From positions 1 through 35,891 of the forward strand of contig NZ_JAEPKU010000032.1 in NCBI RefSeq assembly GCF_016652235.1: a DNA stretch of 35,891 bases, read 5' to 3'. The position numbers and the translations under genes were made by a program. The notes beneath the pieces are model-generated. The model saw only the letters and a program-made list of their open reading frames with translations. It did not search any database and was not told where the DNA came from. This document shows, in pieces, positions 1 to 28,618 of this stretch. Positions within the stretch are counted from its first letter, which is position 1. Each line of letters opens with the position of its first letter. Origin of the DNA: Dysgonomonas sp. Marseille-P4677. GTDB lineage: Bacteria > Bacteroidota > Bacteroidia > Bacteroidales > Dysgonomonadaceae.

Positions 1-44
1 ATTTTAGAGAGATATTATGTCTACCTATAAAATAATAAAATCAA

Positions 45-393
45 ATGAAGTACACATTTAGAATCTCATTTTTCTTGAAGAAAAACGTAGTACGGAAAAT
101 GGCAAATCTCCAATTATTGCAAGAATAACATTGAATGGTAAAAAAAGTTGAGTATTGAATCATTGATGTGGGATGTTAATACGGGAGAAGCAAAGGGTTG
201 CAGCCATGAATCCTCATCTCTTAATAATGACCTTAATTCAATCCAGATGATCCTTTATACATATTACCGGAACCTGAGTGAAAAGTGTGAAGTAATCACA
301 GCAGACAAATTACGAAAAATGTATACACAGACAGAAACCTTCCCTCAAACACTTCTAACTCTATTCAGAAAACACAATGAGGATGAATTAAAA
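45..393 (+). pseudogene. Decayed tyrosine recombinase (integrase), N-terminal arm-binding part only
   Basis: This is the N-terminal part of a Bacteroidota-type phage/conjugative-element integrase, spread over three frames. From the ATG at 45 it reads KYTFRISFFLKKNVVR. After a shift near 96-99 it reads NGKSPIIARITLNGKK, and after a second shift in the A-run at 140-146 it reads LMWDVNTGEAKG, SLNNDLNSIQ and TLLTLFRKHNEDELK. The order matches the arm-type DNA-binding and start of the SAM-like core-binding domain of these integrases. The catalytic domain with the R-H-R-Y residues is absent. Similarity stops near 390, exactly where a minus-strand AraC remnant begins, so the open frame running on to 519 is a chimera. 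Family knowledge says such enzymes insert mobile elements; this copy must be dead. Recognition is from memory of the family, not from a search. Confidence 0.65.
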
Positions 394-633
394 TACATCT
401 TTATTTACATTTTCACGGGTAATAAACTGACGGTCATAGAAACGCATACAATGATTGAGAAAAACTTCAATATTGGCTGTAATTATAGATTTACTGTGTT
501 TGCCAATAGAGTCCATTAGTTCTTCTCTTATTTCCTTAAAACAATTAATAATAGTGTGTCGTTTCCTGAGTGATAGAAAAGACAGAGTTGTATTTAGTAA
601 TAAAAACCCGGATGATTTTGTCAAATACGGCAA
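388..633 (-). pseudogene. Remnant of an AraC-family transcriptional regulator (middle part)
   Basis: On the minus strand this frame contains KHSKSIITANIEVFLNHC followed by RFYDRQFITRENVNKDV. This closely resembles the linker between the N-terminal cupin-like domain and the HTH domain of Bacteroidota AraC regulators (typically I-D-K-H-S-Q ... L-L-N-Y-C-x-R-F-Y-D-R-Q-F-I-T-R). Just upstream, LSLRKRHTIINCFKEIREEL fits the usual L-S-x-x-E-R-x-T-I segment. The frame ends in a stop at 388-390, before any helix-turn-helix, and no clear N-terminal half is visible above about 600. It is therefore a fragment truncated at its 3' end by the same junction that truncates the integrase. The family assignment rests on motif memory and needs a profile search. 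Confidence 0.55.
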
Positions 634-968
634 GTATGAAATGCGTGGCTGCGATAAAATATTATTGGAAAAAAGCTATCTTATCCATGCTAAAGTTAAG
701 TGGTATAGTATCGGTAACTTCGCTTATTCTTTCCTCTGGAAAGAGAATAAATCAGATACTGAGTACAAAGAATAGTGGAGCGATCCGAGAAAGGCAAAAA
801 TCCAAAAAGGGAAAAAAGCAAATCGAAACTCCCATAGTCAAGAAAAATAACAGATTGAAACGCAAATAAATGGTCAAATATCCTCTCTAAACACCCGATG
901 ACATTGGTTAAAGCCATTAATAGATATGAATATAAGAGTGATATATAGTTTCATATTTTGAGGGGATT
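634..968. other. Stretch without a recognisable gene
   Basis: Short overlapping open frames exist on both strands here, but none has a recognisable domain, signal peptide or plausible start, and they overlap each other. Given the gene remnants immediately to the left, this is most simply further decayed sequence. A stretch around 600-680 (+) that reads NPDDFVKYGKYEM is not something I can assign. Confidence 0.4.
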
Positions 969-1000
969 AAAAACCCTGCCGAGTTTTTACTCTGACAGGG
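969..1000 (-). terminator. Rho-independent terminator for the minus-strand DUF2589 cluster
   Basis: Read on the minus strand, CCCTG and GAG/CTC segments form a roughly 10-bp stem with one bulge and a short A-rich loop (974-1000). It is followed by a run of five T residues (plus-strand A at 969-973). It lies 20 bp after the stop codon of the 52-residue zinc-ribbon gene, where the cluster should end. Confidence 0.7.
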
Positions 1001-1019: not shown

Positions 1020-1178
1020 TTAACAAGGTGTAGCTCCGCATTTTGGACAAACCCTTGAATCAATAGGAATAGTCGTGCCACAGTCAATACATTTCTTCGT
1101 TTCTTCGCTGCGACTAGAACTAGAGCATTGATCTGCTTCTTCAGTCATTTGAACTCCACATTTCCAAGATTTTCTCAT
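1020..1178 (-). CDS. 52-residue zinc-ribbon mini-protein
   Basis: This is a small open frame with ATG at 1178 and TAA at 1020-1022. The C-terminal half carries CIDCG (from residue 30) and CPKCGA (from residue 44). The pattern C-x2-C, ten residues, C-x2-C is a typical zinc-ribbon knuckle pair, like those of small zinc_ribbon_2 proteins. Cysteines at positions 7 and 18 and the final residue 52 are extra and outside the ribbon. No signal peptide or membrane helix is present, so a cytoplasmic location is likely. It lies 115 bp downstream of the lipoprotein gene and directly before a good terminator, so it may be the last gene of the DUF2589 cluster. Function is unknown. The intact four-cysteine ribbon makes a chance frame unlikely. 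Confidence 0.65.
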   Translation of the reverse strand: MRKSWKCGVQMTEEADQCSSSSRSEETKKCIDCGTTIPIDSRVCPKCGATPC

Positions 1179-1293
1179 AATATTTAATTGTATTAAAATT
1201 ATATCCTCCTTTTTTGGCGAGGAATACTACCGATGCTACTCTCTTAGGGATTTTCTCATTTCTCCCAATTGTAATATCATACTATAATGTAAA

Positions 1294-1701
1294 TCACTCG
1301 ATATATTCGAAAATCACTATACTACGACCTCTGATACTAGACTTTAGTATTAATTTATAAGGATTTTCACTTGGATTCCAATCGAATCTACCATCGAAGT
1401 ACGTCTTATTTTGAACTGTTTCTCCACTTAATATAATTCTCTTATTCTCTTTGTTATTATCATTATTAAGAATATTTTCAGCAAAATCTTTGGCATCTGC
1501 TATGTCTATATCTGTAACACGATAATTAGATACTCCAGACCTAATATTGTTGATAATATCATTCTTAATACTATCACTATTTGGACTACTTGTAATTTCA
1601 CTTTTATAATTAATTACTTTCATATCCTTTTCATCACATCCCACAAAAAACATAGACGAAAAGAAGCTGAGAAATAAAATGAACAAAATATTTTTTTCCA
1701 T
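1294..1701 (-). CDS. Hypothetical lipoprotein, 135 residues
   Basis: The protein begins with a hydrophobic signal segment ending in the lipobox F-V-G-C, with the modified cysteine at residue 22 followed by D-E. In Bacteroidota, acidic residues after the cysteine are compatible with export to the outer membrane or surface. The remaining ~113 residues are polar and Asn-rich, with no cysteines and no domain I recognise; they suggest a small secreted domain. It starts 11 bp after the stop of the 74-residue zinc-ribbon gene and is almost certainly co-transcribed with the DUF2589 genes. It is the only member of the cluster with a secretion signal, which makes it the likely envelope contact of whatever the cluster does (inference). 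Confidence 0.75.
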   Translation of the reverse strand: MEKNILFILFLSFFSSMFFVGCDEKDMKVINYKSEITSSPNSDSIKNDIINNIRSGVSNYRVTDIDIADAKDFAENILNNDNNKENKRIILSGETVQNKTYFDGRFDWNPSENPYKLILKSSIRGRSIVIFEYIE

Positions 1702-1712
1702 AACTATAATTT

Positions 1713-1937
1713 TTAAAATTTACTTTTTGAATTTACACGGTTTTGTACCTCCTGCACCTTATGCAGAGCAGATAGAGCCTCCTTCGATTTGAACTTATCG
1801 ATAACCAACTGTAATGAACACTTTGGACACCGTATACTGGAAGATGTTATCAACTCCTGAATACTTGTTTTTATCAACTCCGAGCACCGCGGGCATTTCA
1901 CACCTGTTGTTTCGGGATTCGCTTGAATTGGATTCAT
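1713..1937 (-). CDS. 74-residue double-CxxC zinc-ribbon protein
   Basis: The protein has CPRC at residues 15-18 and CPKC at 37-40, a classic zinc-ribbon spacing. A lysine-rich C-terminal helix with heptad-like spacing follows (about residues 46-70). There is no signal peptide. It lies 14 bp below the shorter DUF2589 gene and 11 bp above the lipoprotein gene, within the same tight minus-strand run. The fold could bind nucleic acid or serve as a protein-protein adaptor; nothing in the sequence chooses between these. A second, smaller zinc-ribbon protein (52 residues) closes the same cluster, so two ribbons seem to be part of one system. Confidence 0.75.
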   Translation of the reverse strand: MNPIQANPETTGVKCPRCSELIKTSIQELITSSSIRCPKCSLQLVIDKFKSKEALSALHKVQEVQNRVNSKSKF

Positions 1938-1951
1938 AAATTAATACTGCT

Positions 1952-2575
1952 TTATTTACGTTTTACTTTGCTTTTATCTGAATCGTCACTTTCAACGTCT
2001 TCTATTTGCAGGTTGTTGGTTGTTAAATGCAATAAATTAGCCAATCCTCCGGGCACATCCGCTTGCTGCATTTTGACCTTTACCTTCATGTTAGCTGTCA
2101 ATCCTTGTCGTAGCTCACCTTTTGCCGACTGTTGTCCTACATCAGGAGCAAGTGCTGCACGTAATTTTACTCCTTGATTCTGGATTTTCACACCCTCTTG
2201 AATTTGCTCGTCTTTAAATGAAAACTGTTTGTCATAACTTTCCGATACTGCGTCTATAATTTGTATGTCAAATTCAAAATAGGCTTCTTTAACCTGCAAT
2301 AGGGGAAGTGGAACAAGGGTAAGTAATGGAACACTGATGCGCTGTATATGTTTTCCTCCAACGTCAAAAGAAGCATAGGAGAACGTTAACATTCTCAGCT
2401 TTCCAAGTTCTTTGGTTTCTTTGTTATACGATTCAAAAGCCAATTCCAATAAATAATCAAGATACCGGCTTGAAGAAATGGAGTCTGCATCAATAGTAGC
2501 TACAAGTGGTGCGGAGATCAAATCCTTTAGTTCCATTACCTGGCTACTTACCTTTTTAATATCATCATTAGCCAT
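1952..2575 (-). CDS. DUF2589-family protein, short form (207 residues)
   Basis: This belongs to the DUF2589 family of unknown function. The diagnostic features are the N-terminal helix with LKDLISAPLVATIDAD (residues 16-31), the central ISVPLLTLVPLPLLQVKEAY (80-99) leading into the strand FEFDIQI, and the late segment VPGGLANLLHLTTNNLQI (about 171-188). All three elements recur at matching places in the longer protein encoded at 3401-4285. The C-terminus is a short basic tail (K-S-K-V-K-R-K). There is no signal peptide or membrane helix, so it is presumably cytoplasmic. It lies 5 bp below the 268-residue gene and 14 bp above a zinc-ribbon gene. Family membership is from motif recognition; function is unknown. 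Confidence 0.8.
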   Translation of the reverse strand: MANDDIKKVSSQVMELKDLISAPLVATIDADSISSSRYLDYLLELAFESYNKETKELGKLRMLTFSYASFDVGGKHIQRISVPLLTLVPLPLLQVKEAYFEFDIQIIDAVSESYDKQFSFKDEQIQEGVKIQNQGVKLRAALAPDVGQQSAKGELRQGLTANMKVKVKMQQADVPGGLANLLHLTTNNLQIEDVESDDSDKSKVKRK

Positions 2576-2580
2576 AATTA

Positions 2581-3387
2581 TTATTCTTTTTCGGTTGGTA
2601 ATAAATTTTCATCATCAATTACACTTATCGGAAGGTAGTTGGGATGTATTCTAAGCTGAAGAGAGTGAATACTTTCAGTCGAATACTTGGATAGTTCAGC
2701 GTTTGACACCTCAATTTCCATAGAAGGCAGCTTTCGCTTCCGATTGAAATTAATATTCTTTGTCAGCATAGGGATAAAAGCACTAAGTGCTTTTTCTATA
2801 CTAATACTGAGAATGCTCTTGAGATTATCTTTCTTCGAGACAACCATATCACTGAAATCTTTATTATCCAGTAATTCCGCAGAAACAACATCCAATGAAA
2901 CTTTGAATAGTACATCATTATAGAAGCTGCCATCTTCCTTTACCAATATCGAAAAATTAGAATAGCACGCGTTTAGAATCTTACGGCTCAAAAAAGCATG
3001 AAACTTATCATTCAGTTGAGACTGTCCGGATAGCTTCTCCAACAATACATTCACCTCTTTATTCTCATTTTGCTGGGCTTTTACAGAAGCTGTTGCACTG
3101 ATTATTACCTTTGCCAACTGCGACGAAACATCTTCACATCGATGTTTGTAATACTCGTAATCAGCCTCATATTGCTCCGGCATGTTGTCTGCCTTCTTTA
3201 TTCCGTATTTCAAATCCAGCTCTACATCACCGAAACTAACGGTAGGCAACTGAAACTTTTCCATACGCCCGTCTTTACGGTATGCTTCGCTCAACTCTGC
3301 TGCATACATATTTGCCTCGTGTTGAGCAACGATCATATCACGAAGGATCGATCCTACTATTTTGCTTAATTGAGCCATAAGATTCAA
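2581..3387 (-). CDS. Hypothetical protein of the DUF2589 cluster (268 residues)
   Basis: I cannot place this protein in a named family with certainty. Its N-terminus is a helix that includes IVGSILRDMIVAQHEANMYA (about 10-29). It is followed by FQLPTVSFGDVELDLKYGI, whose layout echoes the V-P-L-L-x-(I/L)-V-P ... F-x-F segment of the two flanking DUF2589 proteins. A helical middle (about 70-150) and a strand-rich C-terminus ending near RIHPNYLPISV follow. It is probably a diverged third member or dedicated partner (inference). No signal peptide, cysteine cluster or enzyme motif is visible. It sits between the two DUF2589 genes with gaps of 5 and 13 bp, so the three are certainly co-transcribed. 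Confidence 0.75.
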   Translation of the reverse strand: MNLMAQLSKIVGSILRDMIVAQHEANMYAAELSEAYRKDGRMEKFQLPTVSFGDVELDLKYGIKKADNMPEQYEADYEYYKHRCEDVSSQLAKVIISATASVKAQQNENKEVNVLLEKLSGQSQLNDKFHAFLSRKILNACYSNFSILVKEDGSFYNDVLFKVSLDVVSAELLDNKDFSDMVVSKKDNLKSILSISIEKALSAFIPMLTKNINFNRKRKLPSMEIEVSNAELSKYSTESIHSLQLRIHPNYLPISVIDDENLLPTEKE

Positions 3388-3400
3388 ATGTTAATTGTGA

Positions 3401-4285
3401 TTATGCTGTTTTAGGTTCATCGACTTTCTTCGACTCTTTCTTTTCAGTCTTATTGCCCTCAACCGTTACAGCCACAGTATTGCCTTCTCCAGCTTGTACA
3501 ATATACTTACCTGCATCTTTAAGCATAAAAATTACGCTGTCGCCGCTAACTTCTCCATCAATTTTAGTATTACCTAACATCAATGTAATTGGTTTTGTGT
3601 CGAATAAACCCTCGCTGTTTTTGTAAGTTGCAATCAGTTGTACCGGCTTTCCGTCATTTAGCATTATCAAGGTTTCGCTAACTTCCAAAGTTCCTTTAGG
3701 GTCAGACACATCAAGCGAACTGCCTAATAGTTCAAGCACTTTTGCCAGACCAGCAGGCATACTTTCCTGTCCGGCTTTTACCGCTACGTCCATCGTATAC
3801 TCAACGCTGTATTTCGAATCTTGCGTAGCTTTTGAATCTTTTTTACTTGAATAATTGGCATTCATTTTTGCTGAAGCCTTAAAAGGCCCCCAACCAACAC
3901 TTACATCTGCTCCCACACTACCCCCAGCTTCTGTGTGTTCGGAGTTTTCAGAGAACGTAGATGCCGAAGCAGAAATATTGGCTTTGAAGTTTAGGTCGAT
4001 CGTGTGAATTGCAATGTAAGGTATCGGAACGATTGTAAGAAGAGGCACGTTAAGTTGTGCCATACGTCCGTTTTGCATAAATTGAAACGATACGTTTATT
4101 GCTTTCTTTTCACCTGTTTGAGAATCGGTATTAAGACCGACTTGTTGAATGAAATTCCATGTTGTTTGGGCAGCCATAGCTTGTGCTTCGATACATGCTT
4201 TGAGTGGGCCACCGATAATTGAACCAAATGGAATCGCTTGTAACGCACTAGTTGCGATTTGCGATGGAGCTGAATCAATTGCCAT
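3401..4285 (-). CDS. DUF2589-family protein, long form with C-terminal Ig-like extension
   Basis: The DUF2589 domain covers about residues 20-190. The helix SIIGGPLKACIEAQAMAAQT (22-41) comes first, then LNVPLLTIVPIPYIAIHTID (78-97) and the strand LNFKANI. A Ser/Gly/Ala-rich stretch (104-155, with SVGADVSVGWGPFKASAKMN) and SMPAGLAKVLELLGSSLDV (175-193) follow. About 80 more residues, rich in alternating hydrophobics, look like one Ig-like beta-sandwich, and the protein ends in a Lys-rich tail. No signal peptide is present. It is the first gene after the best promoter in this region (-7 box at 4333-4340), about 43 nt beyond the predicted start point. Function is unknown; the beta-rich, low-charge core suggests an assembling or lipid/surface-binding protein (inference). 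Confidence 0.8.
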   Translation of the reverse strand: MAIDSAPSQIATSALQAIPFGSIIGGPLKACIEAQAMAAQTTWNFIQQVGLNTDSQTGEKKAINVSFQFMQNGRMAQLNVPLLTIVPIPYIAIHTIDLNFKANISASASTFSENSEHTEAGGSVGADVSVGWGPFKASAKMNANYSSKKDSKATQDSKYSVEYTMDVAVKAGQESMPAGLAKVLELLGSSLDVSDPKGTLEVSETLIMLNDGKPVQLIATYKNSEGLFDTKPITLMLGNTKIDGEVSGDSVIFMLKDAGKYIVQAGEGNTVAVTVEGNKTEKKESKKVDEPKTA

Positions 4286-4332
4286 AATGTTGTAATTTTA
4301 AAAATTAATAAATTAACTTGAAGCTTCAGATA

Positions 4333-4363
4333 CAAATCTAAGCGTCGTAACATCCTTGGCAAA
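4333..4363 (-). promoter_or_regulatory. Bacteroidota-type promoter for the DUF2589 cluster
   Basis: On the minus strand TTTG (4363-4360) lies 19 bp before TAGATTTG (4340-4333), an exact match to the TAnnTTTG -7 consensus of Bacteroidota sigma-70-type promoters with near-ideal spacing. Transcription would start around 4328, about 43 nt before the ATG at 4285. The cluster can therefore be expressed separately from the upstream LytTR gene. Confidence 0.65.
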
Positions 4364-4385
4364 ATTTGTTTTTCTAACGACAATT

Positions 4386-4400
4386 CTGTTCTCCGAACAG
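4386..4400 (-). other. Short perfect hairpin after the LytTR gene
   Basis: CTGTTC and GAACAG form a perfect 6-bp stem around a 3-nt loop, 6 bp past the LytTR stop codon and just upstream of the DUF2589 promoter. There is no T-run directly after it, so it is at best a weak terminator. It could also be a regulator-binding repeat. Confidence 0.4.
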
Positions 4401-4406
4401 CAATAT

Positions 4407-4991
4407 TTATTCGTATTTCCGGCTTCTTGTACCAACGAATGAGAATGACTTGTTTACAGTTTTTTGAAATTCTCTTCCGATAGGCAATCTCTCGCCGCTA
4501 ACCATTTTCACGGTATTTCCCATGATAGATTCCACATAATGAAGATTGATTATATAACCTCGGTGAATACGAATAAAATCTTTACTGACAATATAATTAT
4601 ATGTTTCAGACATAGAAATGGATACAAGCATTGTTTCGGCATCCGATAGATGAATTTCACAATAGCTCCGTGATGCCTGCAGATGTGTTATACTACTGAT
4701 GGCAATTCTTTTAAATCCGTCTGATACCCTGACAAATAAGTGGTTGGTTATTAATATATCTGAATCAGATGAAGTTCCGGGATTTTCCAACACACTGTAT
4801 GGGTAGTTCGATTTATGGATTTGATCAAGAAACTCGCTTTCATTTGCTTGCAGGTGAATTATTTTGGGGGAATTGGTTTTACTATTGATTATGCAAATGA
4901 TAATACTTTCCACAATATTTGTAATATGGTCACTCATCATGCTGCGGTTTATCATATTACAACAATGCGGGTGTTCTTTCGAACCCCGCAT
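4407..4991 (-). CDS. LytTR-domain DNA-binding regulator without receiver domain
   Basis: A LytTR DNA-binding domain fills about residues 79-182. Its hallmarks are ITHLQASRSYCEIHL (101-115), the conserved DFIRIHRGYIINLHYVESI (138-156) and LPIGREFQKTV (169-179). The N-terminal ~75 residues carry no phospho-acceptor receiver domain. Such stand-alone LytTR proteins are common in Bacteroidota and bind pairs of short direct repeats. The start is uncertain: the ATG at 4991 overlaps a GC-rich hairpin (4967-4989), so ATG 4955, 4940 or 4937 are credible. It is immediately upstream of the DUF2589 cluster on the same strand, and downstream of a terminator that isolates it from the fimbrial operon. It is the obvious candidate regulator of the cluster (inference from position). 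Confidence 0.85.
   Translation of the reverse strand: MRGSKEHPHCCNMINRSMMSDHITNIVESIIICIINSKTNSPKIIHLQANESEFLDQIHKSNYPYSVLENPGTSSDSDILITNHLFVRVSDGFKRIAISSITHLQASRSYCEIHLSDAETMLVSISMSETYNYIVSKDFIRIHRGYIINLHYVESIMGNTVKMVSGERLPIGREFQKTVNKSFSFVGTRSRKYE
4967..4989 (-). promoter_or_regulatory. Leader hairpin with GNRA-type tetraloop at the LytTR start
   Basis: On the minus strand GCGGG-GTTC, the loop GAAA and GAAC-A-CCCGC form a 9-bp stem with one bulged A. The strong GC stem in AT-rich DNA sits directly on the first possible start codon of the LytTR gene. It is probably either a 5' leader structure, with the true start downstream, or a weak terminator/attenuator. No T-run follows. Confidence 0.45.
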
Positions 4992-5081: not shown

Positions 5082-5954
5082 TTAATTAATTCTGATCACT
5101 TCTGTAATAGTACCCTGATCACCCCATGCACTGATAGTACCTGTTTGGAATTCAATTCCATAGCGGGTCAGCATTAACGTTATTTCAAGATGTTTGCCAC
5201 TTTCTAAGGCAGTCAATGTAGCAGGAACCTTGTAGGTAAATGTTTCTCCGTCAATCTGTATTTCTATCATTTCATCTCCTGTGGTCAATGTTTGAGGAGC
5301 TACAATGAACATGGCATTGGAACCTGTTACCGAAGGGTAAGGATCTGTTCCCTCTGCGGCGGTTTCATCTACGGTACAATCTGAAAAATTGACCTTCGCA
5401 TCCGATTTTAAGTTTTTCAGTGTGATTACAGCGTTTTGCAGAACATCAATAGAATAATAGTTCGTACCCAAATATATCGTCAGTTTATGCATTAGATGTT
5501 TAAACTGCAGGTTCACAGGATTACCTTTAGCTACAGTAACCTTCGGTGCCATCAACAGGTCTTTGGCTGCTTCGGTTGCCGCGCCGGCTACCTTGTATCG
5601 CACAACTCCGCTACCTGAATAACTCGGATACCAAGCAGAAAAAACAAGCGGATCGCCATAATGCGAAGTTAATACATCCCAATAAAGATTGCTACTACCG
5701 ATCTTGTACTCGACCCCGCCTCCGAACTGTGTCGTCGGATTTTCGTAACACAGGGTTAATATGTCTCCTTCTTCAAATTCTCCACTGCCATCATAATCGA
5801 AAGCAGCCTTTGTCTTTCCACCGGTCGATGCGTCAATGGTGGCTACGATTTTTACTTCTTTGCGAGAGTTGTCTACTTCCTCGTCGTTGTTAGAACATGC
5901 TGTAAAAGCTAGTGCTAGAATCAATGTAGCTGTAAATAATTTTGTTGTTTTCAT
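5082..5954 (-). CDS. Fimbrillin-family lipoprotein, distal copy
   Basis: This is a fimbrillin (FimA/Mfa1-like) subunit lipoprotein. The signal peptide ends in the lipobox F-T-A-C with the cysteine at residue 20. Fimbrillins are exported as lipoproteins, cleaved at the surface and polymerised into short fimbriae (family knowledge). Typical features are the T-K-A-x-F segment near residue 50, GDILTL (about 65), FSAWYP (about 105), the AAKDLLMAPKVTVAKGNPVN block and the conserved FKHLMHKLTIYL segment (about 152-163). The protein is a close paralogue of the one at 7667-8527, with long stretches nearly identical, so the pair arose by duplication. It is last in the fimbrial operon, 33 bp after the lectin-tipped subunit. 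It could be the main shaft subunit or an alternative one. Confidence 0.85.
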   Translation of the reverse strand: MKTTKLFTATLILALAFTACSNNDEEVDNSRKEVKIVATIDASTGGKTKAAFDYDGSGEFEEGDILTLCYENPTTQFGGGVEYKIGSSNLYWDVLTSHYGDPLVFSAWYPSYSGSGVVRYKVAGAATEAAKDLLMAPKVTVAKGNPVNLQFKHLMHKLTIYLGTNYYSIDVLQNAVITLKNLKSDAKVNFSDCTVDETAAEGTDPYPSVTGSNAMFIVAPQTLTTGDEMIEIQIDGETFTYKVPATLTALESGKHLEITLMLTRYGIEFQTGTISAWGDQGTITEVIRIN

Positions 5955-5987
5955 AAATATATAATATTAAATAGTAAAAATATTTTC

Positions 5988-7646
5988 TTAATACTCCCTT
6001 ATCCAACGGACATTACCATCATCGCTCTTTAAAAAATAACCGTATTGAGCAGATTCAACGTTAAAGATAAAGCTTCCGTTAGCCCAATCTTCGGATGAAG
6101 ATAAATACCTTTTAGCCACACTATTACCGCTGCAACCTATAGCTATACCACCATCTTTTGCCGTAAGTTTTGCATTGAACTGTGTACGAGCTTCTTTACA
6201 TTCGGGCGAATCATAACCCGGCATATTATTGCTCGCTATCCAACCCACAATGCTCTCATAAACTTTGCCGCTATATCCTGCATAAAGCATTTTCAACTCA
6301 TCACGGGCAGGCAGATACCAGGCTCCGTTCTCGTTACCGTTGTTCATATTATAAATATGAAAGAAAGCAGGATAATCCATGGAAAAGGCAACGATCGAAC
6401 CCTTATATTTGGCAATCAGGCTTCTTGTGGCTGTTGCTCCGTCTGTCAGGCTGCGGATACCTGCCACTCCGGCGGCGTCTTCATCATTATCCGGTCCCCA
6501 TTTCGAGACATAGGCCTCTTTGAATGCCACAACCTTGCCTTTGGTTCCAAAACTGCCCGGCTTCACCCAGAATACAATGCCATCGGGGTAAGTATTGTCG
6601 GGCCAGTAGTCGCCAACGGCATAGGATGTACCTGTCATTGCGTTAAGATCGCCGGTATCTACCTTCAACCGGAAATAATAGCTATTGCCCTGCTCTATGC
6701 CACCGGAAAGGAAATCGAGATCGGTTCCGATATTATACGTTTTAGTAACCAGATAGTTATTAGTTCCGTCTGTAAAGGATAGTTCGATAATTAAGTCATC
6801 TGAACTTTCAAACGCATCTGTAGCTGTGGGCAACACGGCCATATAACCTTCGCACTGGTTTTTTCCGTCTTTGACAGAGAAATTCCGGGCGTTGCCGGTT
6901 AATTCTAAAGTTAAATTAGGAAATTTTGATGAGTTCCCAACCGAGAGTGAACCGTCGTCAATATTATTCAAATTAGCTATAGCGGCAAACACCGATTTGC
7001 CGGAACTCAGCCCCACATTGATATTTTCCAACTTCAGACTATTGTTGTCCGAGTTATTCCATACGGCAAAACGAAGCATCGAAGCAAGATGCTTGTAAGT
7101 AAGATTAATAGGGCTACTACCATTCACAACTACATCGCTTTGAGCTTTCATCAGCATATAGGCTCCCGTATGTGTGGAATTAGCTTGGTCTTGTGTTTGA
7201 TAAGCAGGTACGTTTGCTCGAAGGAAAGATCCGTAATCAGTTCTAAGTTCCCAAGCCGAAGACGGATAAAGTCCATATGCAGTGTATGCTCCATCATCTA
7301 CACTTCCACTCTGAGCAACAAATGTACAACTGTTGCTTTGCTCTCCCGCTACTACGCTTGCAGCATAATCCACTCTTTTGTATTGGAGTGGGTGCGTCGT
7401 ACTTGGATTCGTAAAAAAGACTGTTGTGGCATCTCCGTTGCTCCAATAGATTTTTTCACCGACTGTATAATCGTTATCTTCTATCACACCTGCCTTTGTT
7501 ACGATTTTATCGCCCTGATCGACAGATGCTATCAGTTGCGGTGCTGTTTTTTCTCTTTCGGGTTGCTCTGTTACGGTCTCATCATTGCTGCATGCTCCAA
7601 GCAATATGGAAATACCGACAAATAAAAATGATATGTATTTTTTCAT
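5988..7646 (-). CDS. Large fimbrillin-family lipoprotein with C-terminal lectin-like (DUF1566-type) domain
   Basis: I chose ATG 7646, 20 bp after the upstream stop, because it puts a standard lipoprotein signal (lipobox L-G-A-C, cysteine 19) at the very N-terminus. An in-frame ATG at 7685 would overlap the preceding gene and bury the signal. About residues 20-330 are fimbrillin-like, with the LTYKHLASMLRFAVWN segment matching the family's F-K-H-x-M-H-K-L core. Residues from about 345 contain GIVFWV, GKVVAF, GAWYLPARDELKMLYAGYSG, YLSSSE and a final VRWIREY. This is the signature of DUF1566/Lcl, a C-type-lectin-like fold related to FGE. The arrangement fits a tip adhesin or minor subunit carrying a binding domain at the fimbrial end (inference). 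It is flanked by the two paralogous short fimbrillins. Confidence 0.85.
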   Translation of the reverse strand: MKKYISFLFVGISILLGACSNDETVTEQPEREKTAPQLIASVDQGDKIVTKAGVIEDNDYTVGEKIYWSNGDATTVFFTNPSTTHPLQYKRVDYAASVVAGEQSNSCTFVAQSGSVDDGAYTAYGLYPSSAWELRTDYGSFLRANVPAYQTQDQANSTHTGAYMLMKAQSDVVVNGSSPINLTYKHLASMLRFAVWNNSDNNSLKLENINVGLSSGKSVFAAIANLNNIDDGSLSVGNSSKFPNLTLELTGNARNFSVKDGKNQCEGYMAVLPTATDAFESSDDLIIELSFTDGTNNYLVTKTYNIGTDLDFLSGGIEQGNSYYFRLKVDTGDLNAMTGTSYAVGDYWPDNTYPDGIVFWVKPGSFGTKGKVVAFKEAYVSKWGPDNDEDAAGVAGIRSLTDGATATRSLIAKYKGSIVAFSMDYPAFFHIYNMNNGNENGAWYLPARDELKMLYAGYSGKVYESIVGWIASNNMPGYDSPECKEARTQFNAKLTAKDGGIAIGCSGNSVAKRYLSSSEDWANGSFIFNVESAQYGYFLKSDDGNVRWIREY

Positions 7647-7666
7647 ATTGTTTTCTTTTATAGTTA

Positions 7667-8527
7667 TTAGTTCCATTCGTCCCAACCTCCGTCGGGTGTA
7701 AAGTCCTCTTCCACGTATCCGCTCACATAACCGCCTTCTTTGAGGGTCAGATTCAAGGTCAAAGCTTTTCCTCTTTCGAGGCGGGTCAAGCCCGACGAAA
7801 CTTTATATGTGCTGCTCTTCCCGGCAATTTCAATCTCAATAATACCCGTGCCTGCGGCAGGGAGAACTTGGGGTGCCACAATGAAAGATACGGAAGCTCC
7901 TGTTTTAGGAGTGTAGCTGTCTGTTCCCTCTGCGGCGGTTTCATCTACGGTACAATCTAAAAAATTGACTATCGCATCCGATTTTAAGTTCTTCAGCGTG
8001 ATAACGGCATTATCCAGTTCAGCAGCAGAATAGAGGCTCGAACTCAACACTATCACCAATTTATGCATCACATGCTTAAATTGCAGGTTCACCGGATCAC
8101 CCTTGGCTACAGTAACCGGCGGTGCCATCAACAGGTCTTTGGCTACTTCGGTTTCCGCGCCGGCTACCTTGTATGGTACAGCTATACCGTCATAAAAAAA
8201 ATGGGGATACCAAGCAAAAAAGACAGTCGAATTGTCACAATACTGGGTTAAATCTTCCCAATAAAGATTAGTAATACCGATCTCGTATGGTTGTTTACTT
8301 TCGTTACCTTCCGTCGGATGCTTATAAATTAGTGTATATCTGTCTCCGGTTTCAAATACTCCGCTGCCATCGTTTTCGAAAACAGCTTTTGTCTTACCGT
8401 CGGTAGCACCAATGGTGGCTACAATTTTCACTTCTTTGCGCGAGTTATCAACTTCCTCGTCGTTCGAACAGGCGGTCAAAGCAAGCACGGTTATAAAAAC
8501 TATAGGTAATATTTTTCTCATTTTCAT
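7667..8527 (-). CDS. Fimbrillin-family lipoprotein, proximal copy
   Basis: The lipobox L-T-A-C puts the modified cysteine at residue 20. Directly afterwards, SNDEEVDNSRKEVKIVATI is almost the same as in the protein at 5082-5954. The blocks AKDLLMAP-VTVAKG, NLQFKHVMHKL, NAVITLKNLKSDA and DCTVDETAAEGTD are also shared, while the loops and the C-terminus differ. The C-terminal end here is longer and acidic (GGYVSGYVEEDFTPDGGW). Two near-copies separated by a lectin-tipped subunit could serve as shaft and adaptor subunits, or could recombine to vary the surface (inference). It starts 7 bp after the FimB/Mfa2-like gene stops and is part of the same operon. Confidence 0.85.
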   Translation of the reverse strand: MKMRKILPIVFITVLALTACSNDEEVDNSRKEVKIVATIGATDGKTKAVFENDGSGVFETGDRYTLIYKHPTEGNESKQPYEIGITNLYWEDLTQYCDNSTVFFAWYPHFFYDGIAVPYKVAGAETEVAKDLLMAPPVTVAKGDPVNLQFKHVMHKLVIVLSSSLYSAAELDNAVITLKNLKSDAIVNFLDCTVDETAAEGTDSYTPKTGASVSFIVAPQVLPAAGTGIIEIEIAGKSSTYKVSSGLTRLERGKALTLNLTLKEGGYVSGYVEEDFTPDGGWDEWN

Positions 8528-8534
8528 TTCTATT

Positions 8535-9374
8535 TTAAGGTTCTATTTCAGATATTATCTCATCCTGTAATGCCCAGCCTTTTATCGTCGATTCGATTCC
8601 TATGGCTGTAAAGATTTCCATATCGCCGGTCAATTTTAGAGGCTTGTATTTGTCGTTATTATTGAAACCCGTGAGTAGAGAACTTACATCCGATATTATC
8701 TGCTGATCAACTTTGCTTTTATAGGTTATGTCCAATATCAGTTCCTGTTTTTCGGCAGTTAACCCTATCAAACGCAGCGAGGCTGATAGCTTGTTTCCAT
8801 TCTGTGCAAATACAGGTTTTACTTTCAGTCCTGCGCCTGAACATACTCCGGTCTTCATCTCCAATATATTTGCTACACCGCTCAATGAAGCAGTTACGGA
8901 TTCTATGTTAGCAATATCTCCATCAGTAATAGTTAATTCTATATTCAGCAGGCGCACTTGTTGTTGCATAACGGCTGTTAAACTTTCTTCTTTATCGTTT
9001 TCAAAGACAGCATCTAATGATGAAGAAAAGAACCATCCCGGTTGTGCATCGACAATGCTGCCTGAAGTGGCAACTGTAGCCGTAGAGCCATTTATTGTTA
9101 TTTTATCAGCCGGGTTATAAATAGTGATGGGATAGGTACCTGCTTCCAGCTCGGGTAAGGTGTTGGTTGCAGAATGAAATGTCAGGTTTTTATTGTTTAA
9201 TACAACTGTATAAGGAGATGGGATTGCAACACCCTCGTTACGGTTTGTCCAGTCGGTCGTTAGAGTAACCTTAGGTGGATTAACCAATTCTTCTTTGGTA
9301 CAGGACGGAAGGATTACGGAAAATAAAACAATGATTGCCGTAAACGATGTGTAATTGAATTTATACTTTTTCAT
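8535..9374 (-). CDS. FimB/Mfa2- or DUF5119-like fimbrial anchor lipoprotein
   Basis: The lipobox is V-I-L-P-S-C (cysteine 25). The segment VTLTTDWTNRNEGVAIPSPY (about 36-55) and LPELEAGTYPITIYNPADKI have the layout of the FimB/Mfa2 and DUF5119 families. In these an N-terminal beta-sandwich carries a D-W motif, a P-x-x-Y/M strand and a G-x-Y-x-(I/V)-x-x-Y-N strand. In Porphyromonas, FimB and Mfa2 anchor the fimbria in the outer membrane and limit its length; they precede the shaft-accessory genes. Here the gene is second in the operon, between the DUF3575 gene and the fimbrillins, as expected for an anchor. Acidic residues after the cysteine (C-T-K-E-E) fit outer-membrane placement. The family is a layout match rather than a strong motif hit. 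Confidence 0.65.
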   Translation of the reverse strand: MKKYKFNYTSFTAIIVLFSVILPSCTKEELVNPPKVTLTTDWTNRNEGVAIPSPYTVVLNNKNLTFHSATNTLPELEAGTYPITIYNPADKITINGSTATVATSGSIVDAQPGWFFSSSLDAVFENDKEESLTAVMQQQVRLLNIELTITDGDIANIESVTASLSGVANILEMKTGVCSGAGLKVKPVFAQNGNKLSASLRLIGLTAEKQELILDITYKSKVDQQIISDVSSLLTGFNNNDKYKPLKLTGDMEIFTAIGIESTIKGWALQDEIISEIEP

Positions 9375-9396
9375 TTCATTAAAGTTTTCAGGTTAA

Positions 9397-9984
9397 TCAG
9401 TTTATTTTCCAAACAAAAGTGATACTTGCGCTTGTCGGTCCCCAATATCCATGCGAATATTTATCTTTGGTACGGACATTTACGTTGTTTTTCCGGGTAT
9501 ATTCTTCTGTGTCGTACAAATAAAGATATCCCAGAGAGATGCCTACATCGACCAGTAGGTTCTGTCCGCAATCAAATTGGTGTCCAAGTGTTAATCCGCC
9601 ACCCATATAGCTGCCTTGTTTTCCAGTCAGGTTATAACTCCCCATCATATACTGTAATCCCAAATAGTTGTCTTTAAGCTCACCGATATAATATCGTACT
9701 TGCGGAGCTACATTCCAGAGATGCCAATATTTATTGGTCGTATTTAAACTCCAGTGAGCAAAAGCACCATCTACAATCAGACCAATATTGTCCGATGGCT
9801 TGTATTCAAATCCGGCATTAGGCATCAGCATTAACCAAGGAACGGCATTGGAGCGTAGGCTTAAACTACCTTTTTCGAAATAGGTTTGCGAGGATCGTTC
9901 GGGCTGTTGTGCATAAACAGCAATACTCATGAAAAACAGTATACAGAGTAAAACCGTTTTATTCATTTTCATTAGATTTGTCAT
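9397..9984 (-). CDS. DUF3575 outer-membrane protein at the head of the fimbrial operon
   Basis: A signal peptide ends with V-Y-A-Q-Q near residue 26. The mature part shows the DUF3575 pattern: LRSNAVPWLMLMPNAGFEYK, then alternating-hydrophobic strands such as YWHLWNVAPQVRYYIG, GSYMGGGLTLGHQF, VDVGISLGYLYLY and a final aromatic strand ending SITFVWKIN. The strands and the aromatic C-terminus suggest an 8-strand-type outer-membrane barrel (inference). DUF3575 genes often lead fimbrillin operons in Bacteroidales. Methionines at 9972 and 9966 are alternative starts and give a more compact signal peptide. It is the first gene of the minus-strand unit, facing the divergent regulators across 346 bp. 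Confidence 0.75.
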   Translation of the reverse strand: MTNLMKMNKTVLLCILFFMSIAVYAQQPERSSQTYFEKGSLSLRSNAVPWLMLMPNAGFEYKPSDNIGLIVDGAFAHWSLNTTNKYWHLWNVAPQVRYYIGELKDNYLGLQYMMGSYNLTGKQGSYMGGGLTLGHQFDCGQNLLVDVGISLGYLYLYDTEEYTRKNNVNVRTKDKYSHGYWGPTSASITFVWKIN

Positions 9985-15652: not shown

Positions 15653-16594
15653 TTGAAGACATTTATATTTTCTTTGATGTTGCTCATAGCATCAATTATT
15701 TCTTTGTTTGTAGGAGTAGCAGATATTTCTATAGCTGATATTATCAAAGGACAAGATGAAGGAATATTCCTTATCGGTATTAGTAGGATTCCACGAACAA
15801 TAGCACTTATATTGGCCGGAATCGGGATGAGTATTTCCGGACTTATCATGCAGCAGCTGACACAGAATAAATTTGTTTCTCCAACAACAGCCGGAACATT
15901 GGAGTCTGCTAAATTAGGTTTGTTGAGCGGATTACTTCTAATTCCTACAGCAAGTGAGGCTGTCAAGATGATGGTTGCATTCTTATTTACATTCTTATCC
16001 AGTTTATTGTTTTTAAATATAATTCGAAAGATTCGTTTTAGAAACTTAGTACTAGTCCCTCTGATCGGTTTAATTTTTGGAGGAATAATAAATTCTATAT
16101 CTACCTTCTTGGCCATTAAAAGAAATATGCTTCAAGATGCTAACTCTTGGTTAATAGGGGATTTTTCCGGGGTTTTACAAGGAAGATACGAGTTGATATA
16201 CTTGAGTCTCCCGTCCATTTTGATAACCTATCTATATGCAAGTCGATTTACGGTAATAGGATTGGGGAAAGATTTTTCCAAAAGCCTGGGGCTCAATTAT
16301 AGTATGGTAATGAATATAGGCCTTTTTTGCGTATCTCTAACAGTCAGCACTGTGGTTATCACTGCCGGAGTAATACCCTTTTTGGGGCTGATTGTTCCAA
16401 ACATTGTCAGTATGATTTATGGAGATAATATTCGTAAAACTTTACCTCTAGTCGCCTTGACGGGAGCTATATTTCTTGTCATATGTGATATAATAGGTCG
16501 TTTGGTAATTTTCCCATACGAGGTCCCGATTGGCATTATGGTCAGTGTAATAGGAGCCGGTATATTTCTAATGATATTATTATGGAAAAGATGA
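15653..16594 (+). CDS. Siderophore ABC transporter permease 1 (FecCD family, CeuB/YclN type)
   Basis: This inner-membrane permease has about nine to ten hydrophobic helices over 313 residues, close to the family's usual length. FecCD hallmarks are RIPRTIALILAGIGMSISGL (about 40-59) followed by IMQQLTQNKFVSPTTAGTLE, the GLGKDFSKSLGLNYSMVMNI loop that contacts the ATPase, and GVIPFLGLIVPNIVSMIYGD. The start is TTG: the next upstream in-frame codons run into a stop at 15635 and contain no ATG or GTG, and starting at the first ATG (Met-9) would cut the first helix. Its stop overlaps the second permease gene, as usual for this transporter class. Together with the next three genes it forms a complete importer. 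Confidence 0.85.
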   Translation: MKTFIFSLMLLIASIISLFVGVADISIADIIKGQDEGIFLIGISRIPRTIALILAGIGMSISGLIMQQLTQNKFVSPTTAGTLESAKLGLLSGLLLIPTASEAVKMMVAFLFTFLSSLLFLNIIRKIRFRNLVLVPLIGLIFGGIINSISTFLAIKRNMLQDANSWLIGDFSGVLQGRYELIYLSLPSILITYLYASRFTVIGLGKDFSKSLGLNYSMVMNIGLFCVSLTVSTVVITAGVIPFLGLIVPNIVSMIYGDNIRKTLPLVALTGAIFLVICDIIGRLVIFPYEVPIGIMVSVIGAGIFLMILLWKR

Positions 16595-17541
16595 CAAAAG
16601 ATAAACGGCAGATCCTTATACTGTTATTCGCACTCGTTGTATCTATTTTACTATTTCTCTTCTATGAATTGGGAAGTAGCTGGATGTTTACACTCCGTTT
16701 ACGTTCGGTTAAAATTGTCGCTATGCTGATTGTATCATGCTGTATCGCCTATTCTACGGTCTCCTTCCAAACATTGACAAACAATCGTATTCTTACCCCT
16801 TCCATTATGGGCTTCGAATCTGTTTATCTCTTATTTCAGACAGTACTAGTATTCATTTACGGAGATATGACTTATAGTGTCCTCAATCATGTTGATAATT
16901 TTATCCTTTCTATTTTTGGGATGATTGCTTTTGCAATGTTACTCTATGTTCTCATATATAAAAGAGGGAAAGATAATCTCTATTTACTATTACTTATCGG
17001 ATTGGTACTGGGTATTCTGTTCAATAACTTGAGTGGATTCATGCAATTGCTGATTGATCCTAACGATTTTTTCATTGTTCAGGGAAAGATGTTCGCTTCT
17101 TTCAATAAAATTAATCAGGAGTTATTAGGTTATGCTTCGGTAATGATGTTCCTCGTTTTACTGATAGGTTTCAAATTGACTAAATATCTGGATGTATTAG
17201 CTCTTGGAAGAGATCAATCAATCAATCTGGGATTGAATTATAACCGCATGGTACAATTATTTCTTATAATTATTGCCATCCTTTCAGCCATATCAACAGC
17301 TTTGGTAGGCCCTATAACATTCTTGGGATTACTGGTAAGTAATTTGACTTATGAAACATTCAGGACGCATAAACATAGAGTCGTCATCATTGCCTGTAGT
17401 TTGATTTCTGCTGTCACCCTCATAGGCGGACAATTTGTGATGGAGCGTTTTTTTAATTTACTTATTCCTATAAGTACAGTTGTCAACTTTGGAGGAGGTA
17501 TTTATTTTTTGTATTTATTATTGAGAGCAAAAAGACTATGA
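16582..17541 (+). CDS. Siderophore ABC transporter permease 2 (FecCD family, CeuC/YclO type)
   Basis: This is the second permease half of the heterodimeric importer. At 319 residues it has multiple membrane helices such as LILLFALVVSILLFLFYELG and FILSIFGMIAFAMLLYVLIY. Family segments are TLTNNRILTPSIMGFESVYL (about 64-83), LALGRDQSINLGLNYNRMVQ and GPITFLGLLVSNLTYETFRT. The R-x-L-T-P-S-I-M-G-F wording is typical of the CeuC/YclO/VctG branch rather than of FecD or BtuC. The ATG at 16582 overlaps the first permease by 13 bp; ATG 16591 would give the usual 4-bp ATGA overlap and is equally likely. Its end overlaps the ATPase gene by 4 bp. Confidence 0.85.
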   Translation: MEKMTKDKRQILILLFALVVSILLFLFYELGSSWMFTLRLRSVKIVAMLIVSCCIAYSTVSFQTLTNNRILTPSIMGFESVYLLFQTVLVFIYGDMTYSVLNHVDNFILSIFGMIAFAMLLYVLIYKRGKDNLYLLLLIGLVLGILFNNLSGFMQLLIDPNDFFIVQGKMFASFNKINQELLGYASVMMFLVLLIGFKLTKYLDVLALGRDQSINLGLNYNRMVQLFLIIIAILSAISTALVGPITFLGLLVSNLTYETFRTHKHRVVIIACSLISAVTLIGGQFVMERFFNLLIPISTVVNFGGGIYFLYLLLRAKRL

Positions 17542-18296
17542 TTAGAGTAACAGATATAATCAAGAAATTTGGACGCAAAATTGTTCTTGATGGAGTAAGC
17601 GTCGAATTTACTAAAGGAAAAATTACTTCATTAATAGGTAGTAATGGTGCGGGGAAAAGTACATTGCTTTCTATAATCAGTCGCTTGTTACTTCATGACG
17701 AAGGAATCATCTTGATTGATGAAAAAAATATAACCGAATATAAAAATAAGATATTAGCTCAACGGCTATCAATTTTAAAACAGTTTAATAATATAGGTCT
17801 TAAGTTGACTGTAAGAGAATTGGTTTCTTTTGGACGTTTCCCCTACTCTCAAGATAAGTTAACACCTGTTGATCTTGAGAAGATAGAAGATGCAATCCGG
17901 TTTCTTGATCTCGAAGATATAGCAGGTTCTCCTATAGACGAATTGAGTGGAGGACAAAAACAACGTGCCTACTTGGCGATGGTTGTTGCACAAGATACCG
18001 AGTACATATTGTTGGACGAACCTTTGAATAATCTGGATATGAAACATTCGGTTCAAATAATGAAAACATTGAGAAGATTGGCCAAAGAACTTAATAAAAC
18101 AATAATTATAGTTCTGCATGATATAAATTTTGCATCACATTATTCCGATTCAATTATTGCTTTGAAAGAGGGAAAAGTAAAATATTCCGATAAAACTGAA
18201 AATATTATCAACGAAGATATACTGGAAGACATTTTTGATATTAAGTTCAGTGTGACTGAACACAATGGTAAAAAAATATGTAACTATTTTAATTAA
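17538..18296 (+). CDS. Siderophore ABC transporter ATPase (CeuD/YclP type)
   Basis: This 252-residue ATP-binding subunit has an intact nucleotide-binding domain: Walker A GSNGAGKST (34-42), Q-loop region around LSILKQ (77-82), signature LSGGQKQRA (136-144), Walker B YILLDEP (156-162), D-loop NNLD and the H-loop histidine in VLHDINFAS. The RELVSFGRFPYSQDKL segment after the Q-loop is characteristic of iron-siderophore ATPases. It works on the cytoplasmic face with the two permeases. It overlaps the preceding gene by 4 bp and is followed after 21 bp by the binding-protein gene. Confidence 0.9.
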   Translation: MIRVTDIIKKFGRKIVLDGVSVEFTKGKITSLIGSNGAGKSTLLSIISRLLLHDEGIILIDEKNITEYKNKILAQRLSILKQFNNIGLKLTVRELVSFGRFPYSQDKLTPVDLEKIEDAIRFLDLEDIAGSPIDELSGGQKQRAYLAMVVAQDTEYILLDEPLNNLDMKHSVQIMKTLRRLAKELNKTIIIVLHDINFASHYSDSIIALKEGKVKYSDKTENIINEDILEDIFDIKFSVTEHNGKKICNYFN

Positions 18297-18317
18297 CTGT
18301 ATTTAAATTATAAAAGT

Positions 18318-20936: not shown

Positions 20937-20984
20937 ATTATAAATATAGTTATCTATTTTTAATTTCTTATGTCACAATACAAA

Positions 20985-21021
20985 CGATGAGTTGCTAATT
21001 GTATAAAACAGCAACTCATCG
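20985..21021 (-). terminator. Large hairpin at the end of the mannan operon
   Basis: Perfect 12-bp arms (CGATGAGTTGCT and AGCAACTCATCG) surround a 13-nt loop, 28 bp past the GH92 stop. On the minus strand the stem is followed by TTTGTATTGT, a T-rich but imperfect tail. It is probably a partial terminator before the HAD gene. Confidence 0.55.
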
Positions 21022-21036
21022 CCTAAATTATATCGT

Positions 21037-21060
21037 ATTCTACGATATTTATCGTAGAAT
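21037..21060 (-). other. Hairpin spanning the GH92 stop codon
   Basis: ATTCTACGAT and ATCGTAGAAT are perfect 10-bp arms around a 4-nt loop. The stem includes the last codons and stop of the GH92 gene (stop 21049-21051). With the larger hairpin at 20985-21021 it forms a tandem 3' structure that may protect the operon mRNA from 3' exonucleases (inference). Confidence 0.5.
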
Positions 21061-23409: not shown

Positions 23410-23428
23410 TGTATATCAAATCATTTAT

Positions 23429-24616: not shown

Positions 24617-24630
24617 GAAATCAATCGGTT

Positions 24631-25854: not shown

Positions 25855-25865
25855 TTATAGTTGTT

Positions 25866-27003: not shown

Positions 27004-27021
27004 AAGATTATTCTTTAATTA

Positions 27022-28605: not shown

Positions 28606-28618
28606 GATATATCGATTT

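What the first reader, a model, noticed from the sequence alone, without database searches (positions are those of the whole stretch)
1020..4991. Compact DUF2589 cluster with zinc-ribbon proteins, a lipoprotein and a LytTR regulator
Two DUF2589 proteins of different size flank a third protein with a similar central segment. They are followed within 5-14 bp by a zinc-ribbon protein and a lipoprotein, then by a second mini zinc-ribbon and a terminator. The shared V-P-L-L-x-(I/L)-V-P and P-x-G-L-A segments point to a set of paralogous building blocks rather than enzymes. A LytTR regulator and a good promoter stand at the head. Nothing here has a known function, yet the order and spacing look like one machine: cytoplasmic assembling proteins plus one exported lipoprotein. 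This is the best candidate in the window for an undescribed system.
Basis: partly seen in the sequence, partly recalled or inferred. Interest (0 to 1): 0.72.

Follow-up and report, generated by a model that had tools for sequence, protein, structure and literature searches.

The report
Conserved DUF2589 operon with swappable enzymes
A small set of bacterial proteins of unknown function is kept together, in the same order, in many distantly related bacteria, often next to a cell-wall-cutting or protein-cutting enzyme, many of which have no export signal; it looks like an undescribed machine for carrying or releasing such enzymes.

Summary
In detail: on the minus strand lie a LytTR regulator, DUF2589a, a middle protein (MID), DUF2589b, a zinc ribbon, a lipoprotein, a mini zinc ribbon and a terminator. 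A genome-wide search found MID in 14 of 390 genomes, each time beside DUF2589. No solved relative was found by sequence; one paper in the library names DUF2589. The lipoprotein and mini ribbon are not conserved. The recurring partner is an enzyme: an N-acetylmuramidase without export signal (22 of 80 loci, downstream, same strand), elsewhere GH25, papain, trypsin-like or M15 enzymes; in five proteins DUF2589 is fused to DUF6734, which elsewhere is a separate gene of the operon. The window's genome has no PF11860 muramidase; its AT-rich lipoprotein fills the variable slot. Best reading: a LytTR-controlled cytoplasmic hetero-oligomer that carries or releases a swappable enzyme. A serine-rich amphipathic hairpin in DUF2589a (mean z 3.3; 3 of 2318 background windows exceed it) makes a pore possible but unproven.

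The parts
4407..4991 (-). LytTR-domain regulator, 194 aa; head of the cluster
   Evidence: PF04397 5.5e-13 over residues 93-182; a LytTR gene lies upstream of the core in at least 25 of 80 loci (the 16 loci without MID were not scored for it)
4333..4363 (-). Bacteroides-type promoter match (TTTG-N19-TAGATTTG) ahead of DUF2589a
   Evidence: not above chance for the window as a whole (3 against 1.38 expected); suggestive by position only
3401..4285 (-). DUF2589a (A), 294 aa: N-terminal helix, beta core with a 56-aa serine-rich amphipathic loop (about residues 104-159), C-terminal Ig-like domain (about 193-280)
2581..3378 (-). MID (M), 265 aa: N-terminal helix, strand pair, inserted helical bundle, short C-terminal strands
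   Evidence: no Pfam family above cut-off; model pLDDT 82, pTM 0.65; in 14 of 390 genomes, each time beside DUF2589
1952..2575 (-). DUF2589b (B), 207 aa
   Evidence: PF11655 8.6e-16; homologous to A at 99.8% profile probability
1713..1937 (-). Zinc-ribbon protein (Z), 74 aa, two CxxC pairs
   Evidence: C15, C18, C37, C40 invariant in 27 aligned sequences
1294..1701 (-). Lipoprotein of 135 aa in the variable slot; not part of the conserved core
   Evidence: lipobox-like signal (direct reading), hydrophobic N-terminus; GC 27.9% against 38-42% for A, M, B and Z; no convincing relatives
1020..1178 (-). Mini double-zinc-ribbon protein, 52 aa; no relative seen
   Evidence: PF13240 1.4e-08; no tblastn match better than E 1.5 in 129 loci
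974..1000 (-). Intrinsic terminator closing the operon
   Evidence: hairpin -16 kcal/mol, z -4.5, 0 of 200 shuffles as good

Best explanation
A, M, B and Z are the fixed core of a cytoplasm-made hetero-oligomer built from paralogues (shown: they are one gene unit; inferred: that they bind one another). In many organisms the operon ends in a swappable enzyme, most often an N-acetylmuramidase without an export signal (shown in relatives; absent from this window). The core probably carries that enzyme to, or through, a membrane when a LytTR or hybrid two-component regulator switches the operon on (inferred), so that the enzyme reaches peptidoglycan or another target, as the holin of a phage does for its endolysin. 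Fusions of DUF2589 with DUF6734, which is a separate gene in other operons, suggest that the DUF2589 domain is what holds the cargo (inferred). The serine-rich amphipathic hairpin of DUF2589a is the best candidate for a membrane-crossing part (inferred). The small variable protein between Z and the enzyme, the slot of the window's lipoprotein, would be an adaptor or immunity partner (inferred). In this window the core is intact but its enzyme is absent.
For: Core order A-M-B-Z in 47 of 80 loci, A-M-B in 58 of 80; median gaps 31, 12 and 12 bp. MID in 14 of 390 phylum genomes, each time beside a DUF2589 hit. LytTR upstream in at least 25 of 80; a hybrid histidine kinase with an AraC domain lies upstream in L052. 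A muramidase profile has 24 matches in the 80 loci, 22 of them downstream on the core strand within 1.4 kb of a core gene; the family is PF11860 with PG_binding_1. 19 of the 24 were checked by a crude hydrophobicity test and none passes it as a signal. Other partners by Pfam on one representative each: GH25, papain, Trypsin_2, M15, subtilase; GH25, Trypsin_2, patatin; GH24 lysozyme overlapping a DUF2589 gene in Burkholderia stagnalis and PF11860 about 2 kb from one on a Smac51 plasmid. DUF2589-DUF6734 fusions in 5 of 8 large proteins scanned, DUF6734 as a separate gene in 6 loci. Hairpin alternation: 49 A proteins, mean z 3.26, 92% above 1.65; 3 of 2318 background windows above 3.26.
Against: The window itself has no PF11860 muramidase, and none was found in its genome, so the commonest cargo is absent here. 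49 of 80 loci show no recognised hydrolase downstream (contig ends, insertions, DUF6734 or unknown genes). In the relatives set, PF11860 occurs in 15 of 150 genomes, and the two that also have DUF2589 carry it on another contig. GH25 of L142 and L148 has its own membrane anchor, so it would not need a carrier. The hairpin loop is modelled with pLDDT under 50, and any exposed beta-hairpin alternates. No physical contact was tested. Zinc ribbons are more usual in nucleic-acid proteins (recalled). The 77 named loci were chosen by similarity to A and include near-duplicates, so 47 of 80 is not a rate for all DUF2589.
Confidence: 0.5

Rival explanations
1. Programmed-suicide (abortive infection) module: a phage or stress signal activates the core, which frees or activates a cytoplasmic killer enzyme inside the producing cell.
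For: Patchy presence (12 of 149 related genomes besides the window's own; 0 of 24 same-genus genomes). Swappable killer-type enzymes, including a patatin close to PADLOC phospholipase effectors (E 1.7e-60) next to the core in L061, and a subtilase matching PADLOC subtilase models (E 1e-24). Four viral contigs (L169-L172) encode a 150-163-aa protein that shares a 28-38-residue segment of A around V-P-L-L-T-I-V-P-I-P (58-68% identity), which could be a phage decoy.
Against: A, M, B and the lipoprotein match nothing in PADLOC; Z has one weak match, 2.1e-05. A muramidase is harmless in the cytoplasm unless exported (recalled). Defence-island enrichment was not tested. The decoy idea is untested.
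Confidence: 0.2
2. Domesticated phage lysis or particle module: the core and muramidase are remnants of a prophage.
For: The muramidase matches PHROG endolysins (3.1e-90). One 4-kb unverified phage scaffold and one 7.4-kb viral contig carry the core, and viral contig L091 has a DUF2589 gene. By reading, integrase genes lie beside the core in L090, L073 and the window.
Against: A, M, B and the lipoprotein match nothing in PHROGs; Z matches two PHROGs of unknown function weakly, 1.1e-4 and 6e-3. 1 of 50,697 phage records has A. I noticed no phage structural genes in the flanks that I read, which was not a systematic search.
Confidence: 0.1
3. Accessory part of a contractile injection system that loads effectors.
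For: Variable effectors beside conserved non-enzymatic genes are typical of such systems (recalled).
Against: Tail-sheath family PF04984 is found in 14 of 150 relatives (4 over the cut-off), none of them among the 13 genomes with DUF2589; chance overlap would be only 1.2, and the profile is weak in this group.
Confidence: 0.05
4. Regulatory or stress complex in the cytoplasm (zinc-ribbon scaffold) with no role in export; enzyme neighbours are incidental.
For: Zinc ribbon; LytTR; upregulation of four DUF2589-related genes on lactate in Archaeoglobus (PMC3949148, one passage read), an organism that lacks bacterial peptidoglycan (recalled).
Against: 22 of 24 muramidases fall in the same downstream slot; unrelated lysozyme families lie beside DUF2589 in unrelated bacteria; DUF2589-DUF6734 fusions.
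Confidence: 0.13

Closest known systems
Pfam PF11655 (DUF2589)
   Same: A and B are members by score
   Different: The family is a sequence label without function; it does not describe the operon, MID, the ribbon or the enzyme partner
Phage holin-endolysin lysis cassette
   Same: Signal-less muramidase of an endolysin family encoded, in relatives, with proteins that could open a membrane
   Different: No transmembrane holin seen; several paralogous subunits; mostly on bacterial contigs; enzyme class varies to proteases; enzyme absent in this window
Polymorphic toxin or effector systems
   Same: Conserved carrier with swappable enzymatic partners and a small variable neighbour; DUF6734 occurs both separate and fused
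   Different: The recognised hydrolases are separate genes; no known trafficking domain or immunity family was detected
Beta-barrel pore-forming toxins (aerolysin-like), recalled
   Same: Long serine/threonine-rich alternating hairpin with an aromatic tip
   Different: No fold match; no secretion signal; constant company of paralogues

Membership tests
PF11655 DUF2589 | Score above the Pfam gathering cut-off (23 bits) | tested here: met
   A 93.2 and B 59.1 bits; MID gives no match and is not a member by this test
LytTR regulators (PF04397) | LytTR DNA-binding domain above cut-off | tested here: met
   49.4 bits against 22.6
Phage-type lysis cassette | Endolysin gene in the operon | tested here: not met
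   No PF11860 in the window's genome and no Pfam enzyme in the window operon; present in 22 of 80 related loci
Phage-type lysis cassette | Holin with transmembrane helices | tested here: inconclusive
   No transmembrane segment seen on reading A, M, B or Z; no dedicated predictor was run
Polymorphic toxin system | Variable toxin domain fused to a conserved trafficking domain | tested here: inconclusive
   Recognised hydrolases are separate genes; DUF6734, of unknown function, is fused to DUF2589 in 5 of 8 large proteins scanned, of 15 that have 470 aa or more
Polymorphic toxin system | Immunity protein next to the toxin | tested here: inconclusive
   Small proteins c1, c3, c34, c7, c31 are linked by profile comparison at 78-97%; activity unknown; the window lipoprotein is not detectably related to them
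Aerolysin-like pore-forming proteins | Common fold with a solved pore-forming protein | tested here: inconclusive
   VIA matches cover only the Ig-like tail and Foldseek lists mostly Ig domains; loop pLDDT under 50
Contractile injection system | Sheath gene in the same genome | tested here: not met
   PF04984 not found in the window's genome nor in the other 12 DUF2589-positive genomes of 150; the profile is weak in this group

The most novel reading that the evidence does not exclude
DUF2589 and MID paralogues form a new family of hetero-oligomeric beta-barrel pores or tubes that move folded, signal-less enzymes across a membrane: a holin-like or translocon-like machine with swappable cargo, spread across several bacterial phyla.
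Probability: 0.28. Interest if true: 0.9.

Novelty: categorically new. Interest (0 to 1): 0.72.

Why it matters
A multi-gene unit conserved over several phyla, with no described function in the library searched and a repeated link to cell-wall and protein-cutting enzymes, suggests an unknown route by which bacteria release or deliver enzymes, or lyse on command. It turns an isolated 'domain of unknown function' into a testable system with defined subunits, cargo and regulator.

Tried and rejected

Considered and dropped: the lipoprotein as a member of the small-protein family c1/c3/c7 (no link above 5% in the profile comparison). An ADP-ribosyltransferase reading of the downstream genes of L161 and L164 rests on a recalled motif; Pfam gave E 0.16 for one and nothing for the other. 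A caspase-like reading of the small genes in L079 and L153 is by eye only; Pfam gave nothing usable.

Rows dropped before counts: of the 80 loci, 16 had no MID in my gene calls (contig ends, broken genes, or variants such as L135 and L141 where another DUF2589 protein stands in its place) and 6 had MID but lacked A, B or both; all stay in the denominators. 10 of 59 A proteins were skipped in the hairpin count because the flanking motifs were not found, most of them from the expanded operons. Of 40 first-round loci, 5 gave no DUF2589 gene with my caller. The caller is simple and can lose short or overlapping genes; it lost the window's own mini ribbon, so that gene was tested again with tblastn. 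The loci are not independent: L100, L101 and L102 have equal gene lengths, L086 and L098 nearly equal ones. 8 of 15 DUF2589 proteins of 470 aa or more were scanned; L153 and L159 had been scanned, the other 5 were not scanned.
Full report
WHAT IS THERE. The window is a whole contig (C206, 35,891 bases) of a 4.73-Mb genome. Its family is probably Dysgonomonadaceae: the same-family genome G038 carries its DUF2589 gene on a contig of 268,634 bases, the length of the Dysgonomonas sp. 520 contig that gave L094 (inference; family name recalled). The finding is a minus-strand cluster: LytTR, DUF2589a (A), MID (M), DUF2589b (B), zinc ribbon (Z), lipoprotein, mini ribbon, terminator. A and B are DUF2589 members and homologous to each other. 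MID belongs to no Pfam family above cut-off. Its model starts like A, with a long helix and strands, and then carries an inserted helical bundle. The profile alignment with A is in register but weak (15%), so common descent is likely, not shown.

DISTRIBUTION. DUF2589 is patchy: 13 of 150 genomes in the relatives set (the window's own included) and 28 of 395 across the phylum. None of the 24 same-genus genomes (G001-G024, kinship as listed) is among the positives. With the window, L086 and L090, 80 loci were mapped. A-M-B-Z stands in that order in 47 of 80 and A-M-B in 58 of 80; a LytTR gene lies upstream in at least 25 of 80. Besides Bacteroidota, the 47 include Anabaena, Dolichospermum, Nostoc and Coleofasciculus, Fibrobacter, Akkermansia and Chlorobaculum, and records labelled Planctomycetaceae and Acetivibrio that may be contaminated. 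Median gaps are 31, 12 and 12 bp. These loci were picked by similarity to A, so the share is not a rate for all DUF2589.

Two checks are free of that bias. First, among the DUF2589 loci fetched from the phylum sample the same order was found in L058 and L074. L074 and L153 are probably the same Chlorobaculum contig (27,584 bases; equal gene lengths). Second, MID was sought genome-wide in 390 genomes: 14 have it, all 14 are DUF2589 genomes, and each has a MID hit next to a DUF2589 hit on the same contig. The other DUF2589 genomes gave no MID in that search, which scores only a few candidates per genome; the iterated profile finds MID in three more loci of the phylum sample (L064, L066, L082). 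Other gene orders exist: DUF2589-DUF2589-ribbon-DUF2589 (L055, L072, L079) and DUF2589-MID-helical protein-subtilase (L052 by Pfam, L059 by reading). Several Bacteroidales operons hold seven DUF2589 proteins around one MID and one ribbon (L131, L133, L137, L140, L166).

THE PARTNER. Downstream of Z the conserved part ends and a variable slot begins. The commonest occupant is PG_binding_1 plus N-acetylmuramidase PF11860. A profile of it has 24 matches among the 1448 ORFs of the 80 loci; 22 lie downstream on the core strand within 1.4 kb, and 2 (L112, L118) lie elsewhere. PF11860 is uncommon: 15 of 150 relatives have it, and the two of these that also have DUF2589 (G032, G148) carry it on another contig. 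So the link is strong in the subtype of the window but not universal. Other enzymes, each identified by Pfam on one representative: GH25 (L142, L148; also L072), papain (L141, L143, L154, L155), Trypsin_2 (L144, L147; also L062), M15 (L152), subtilase (L052), patatin upstream in L061, and a GH24 lysozyme whose frame overlaps a DUF2589 gene by up to 17 bases in a Burkholderia stagnalis replicon. A Deltaproteobacteria plasmid has PF11860 about 2 kb downstream of DUF2589. By this reading 31 of the 80 loci have a recognised hydrolase downstream (22 muramidase, 4 papain, 2 GH25, 2 trypsin-like, 1 M15) and 49 do not. Of the 24 muramidases 19 were tested for an N-terminal signal by a crude hydrophobicity score; none reached 1.8, the highest being 1.75 in L151, a shorter form. 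The GH25 enzymes of L142 and L148 do have an anchor.

DUF6734, a family of unknown function, is a separate gene at the end of six operons (cluster c2; Pfam on L135). In five others (L130, L131, L133, L134, L140) it is fused behind a DUF2589 domain in one protein. A domain that is a partner gene in one operon and a fusion in another is usually a physical partner. This raised my confidence in the carrier reading from 0.45 to 0.5 and interest from 0.70 to 0.72.

Between Z and the muramidase there is often a small variable protein. Clusters c1, c3 and c34 (95-97%), and c7 and c31 (78-90%), are linked by profile comparison; some members have signal peptides, others an amphipathic start.

THE WINDOW'S OWN VARIANT. 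After Z come the lipoprotein and the mini ribbon, then an integrase-like remnant on the other strand (by reading) and the contig end. PF11860 was not found in the genome. The lipoprotein has 27.9% GC against 38-42% for A, M, B and Z and no convincing relatives. I read it as a newcomer in the variable slot, not as a part of the machine.

HOW IT MAY WORK. Shown: a conserved gene unit of paralogues, with a regulator gene in many loci and a swappable enzyme. Inferred: hetero-oligomer formation and a carrier or release role. The main structural clue is the 56-residue loop of A between two long strands. Its hydrophobicity alternates with period two (49 proteins, mean z 3.26, 92% above 1.65); of 2318 windows of other proteins from the same loci 3 exceed 3.26. 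By reading, it is rich in Ser, Thr, Gly, Asn and Ala and usually has a glycine-aromatic turn. Such hairpins build the barrels of pore-forming proteins (recalled), but any exposed hairpin alternates, the sequences are related, and the model is unreliable there. No solved structure was matched to A outside its Ig-like tail, or to MID; the tools used cannot exclude a missed fold.

PHAGE SIDE. One of 50,697 phage records has A, an unverified 4-kb gut scaffold with the full A-M-B-Z-small protein-muramidase set. In viral contigs, L090 has LytTR-A-M-B, with DUF2589b shortened before an integrase gene (by reading), and L091 has a DUF2589 gene. Four more (L169-L172) encode a 150-163-aa protein with only the V-P-L-L-T-I-V-P-I-P segment of A (28-38 residues, 58-68% identity). 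Whether this is a decoy, a shared binding motif or something else is open; it is the best lead for the defence rival.

LITERATURE. DUF2589 occurs in one paper of the library: Archaeoglobus fulgidus genes AF0414-AF0417, upregulated on lactate (PMC3949148, one passage read). PF11655 occurs in none. Searches joining LytTR, muramidase, DUF3380, toxin and Bacteroides terms listed nothing that looked like this operon (listings only). Preprints and most subscription papers are not held, so 'undescribed' means undescribed in this library.

VERDICT. A real, conserved and apparently undescribed system. The mechanism is a hypothesis at 0.5, the pore version at 0.28.

Noticed in passing
L169:7767-8219, L170:7767-8231, L171:7752-8222, L172:7761-8252: Four viral contigs encode a 150-163-aa protein that shares only a 28-38-residue segment (V-P-L-L-T-I-V-P-I-P-Y-I) with DUF2589a, and by reading repeats a variant of it near the C-terminus.
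   Followed up: partly
L130, L131, L133, L134, L140: DUF2589 fused to DUF6734 in one protein; in six other operons DUF6734 is a separate gene.
   Followed up: partly
window 1-900: Degenerate tyrosine-recombinase (integrase) remnant on the plus strand, by reading of the translation, between the operon's end and the contig end.
   Followed up: no
window 5082-9984: Fimbrillin-like lipoprotein genes (5082-5954 matches Mfa_like_1; 7667-8527 is similar by reading) directly upstream of LytTR on the same strand; LytTR might also serve them.
   Followed up: no
window 20157-35738: Apparent glycan-use locus by reading of the translations: GH92-like, two GH76-like proteins, SusD- and SusC-like genes, ROK-type kinase, sugar transporter and mannose-6-phosphate isomerase-like protein.
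   Followed up: no
window 15653-19262: Iron-siderophore-type ABC transporter genes (two permeases, ATPase, binding lipoprotein), by reading of the translations.
   Followed up: no
L131, L133, L137, L140, L166: Expanded operons with seven DUF2589 proteins around one MID and one ribbon.
   Followed up: partly
L052:3586-10332: DUF2589-MID-194-aa helical protein-subtilase-70-aa protein operon with a hybrid two-component regulator upstream; similar gene orders in several other first-round loci.
   Followed up: partly
L161:4476-5036, L164:10910-11500: Downstream genes whose translations both carry a Y-R-x-D-x-R motif near the start, reminiscent of ADP-ribosyltransferases (recalled motif; no significant Pfam match).
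   Followed up: partly
   Followed up: no
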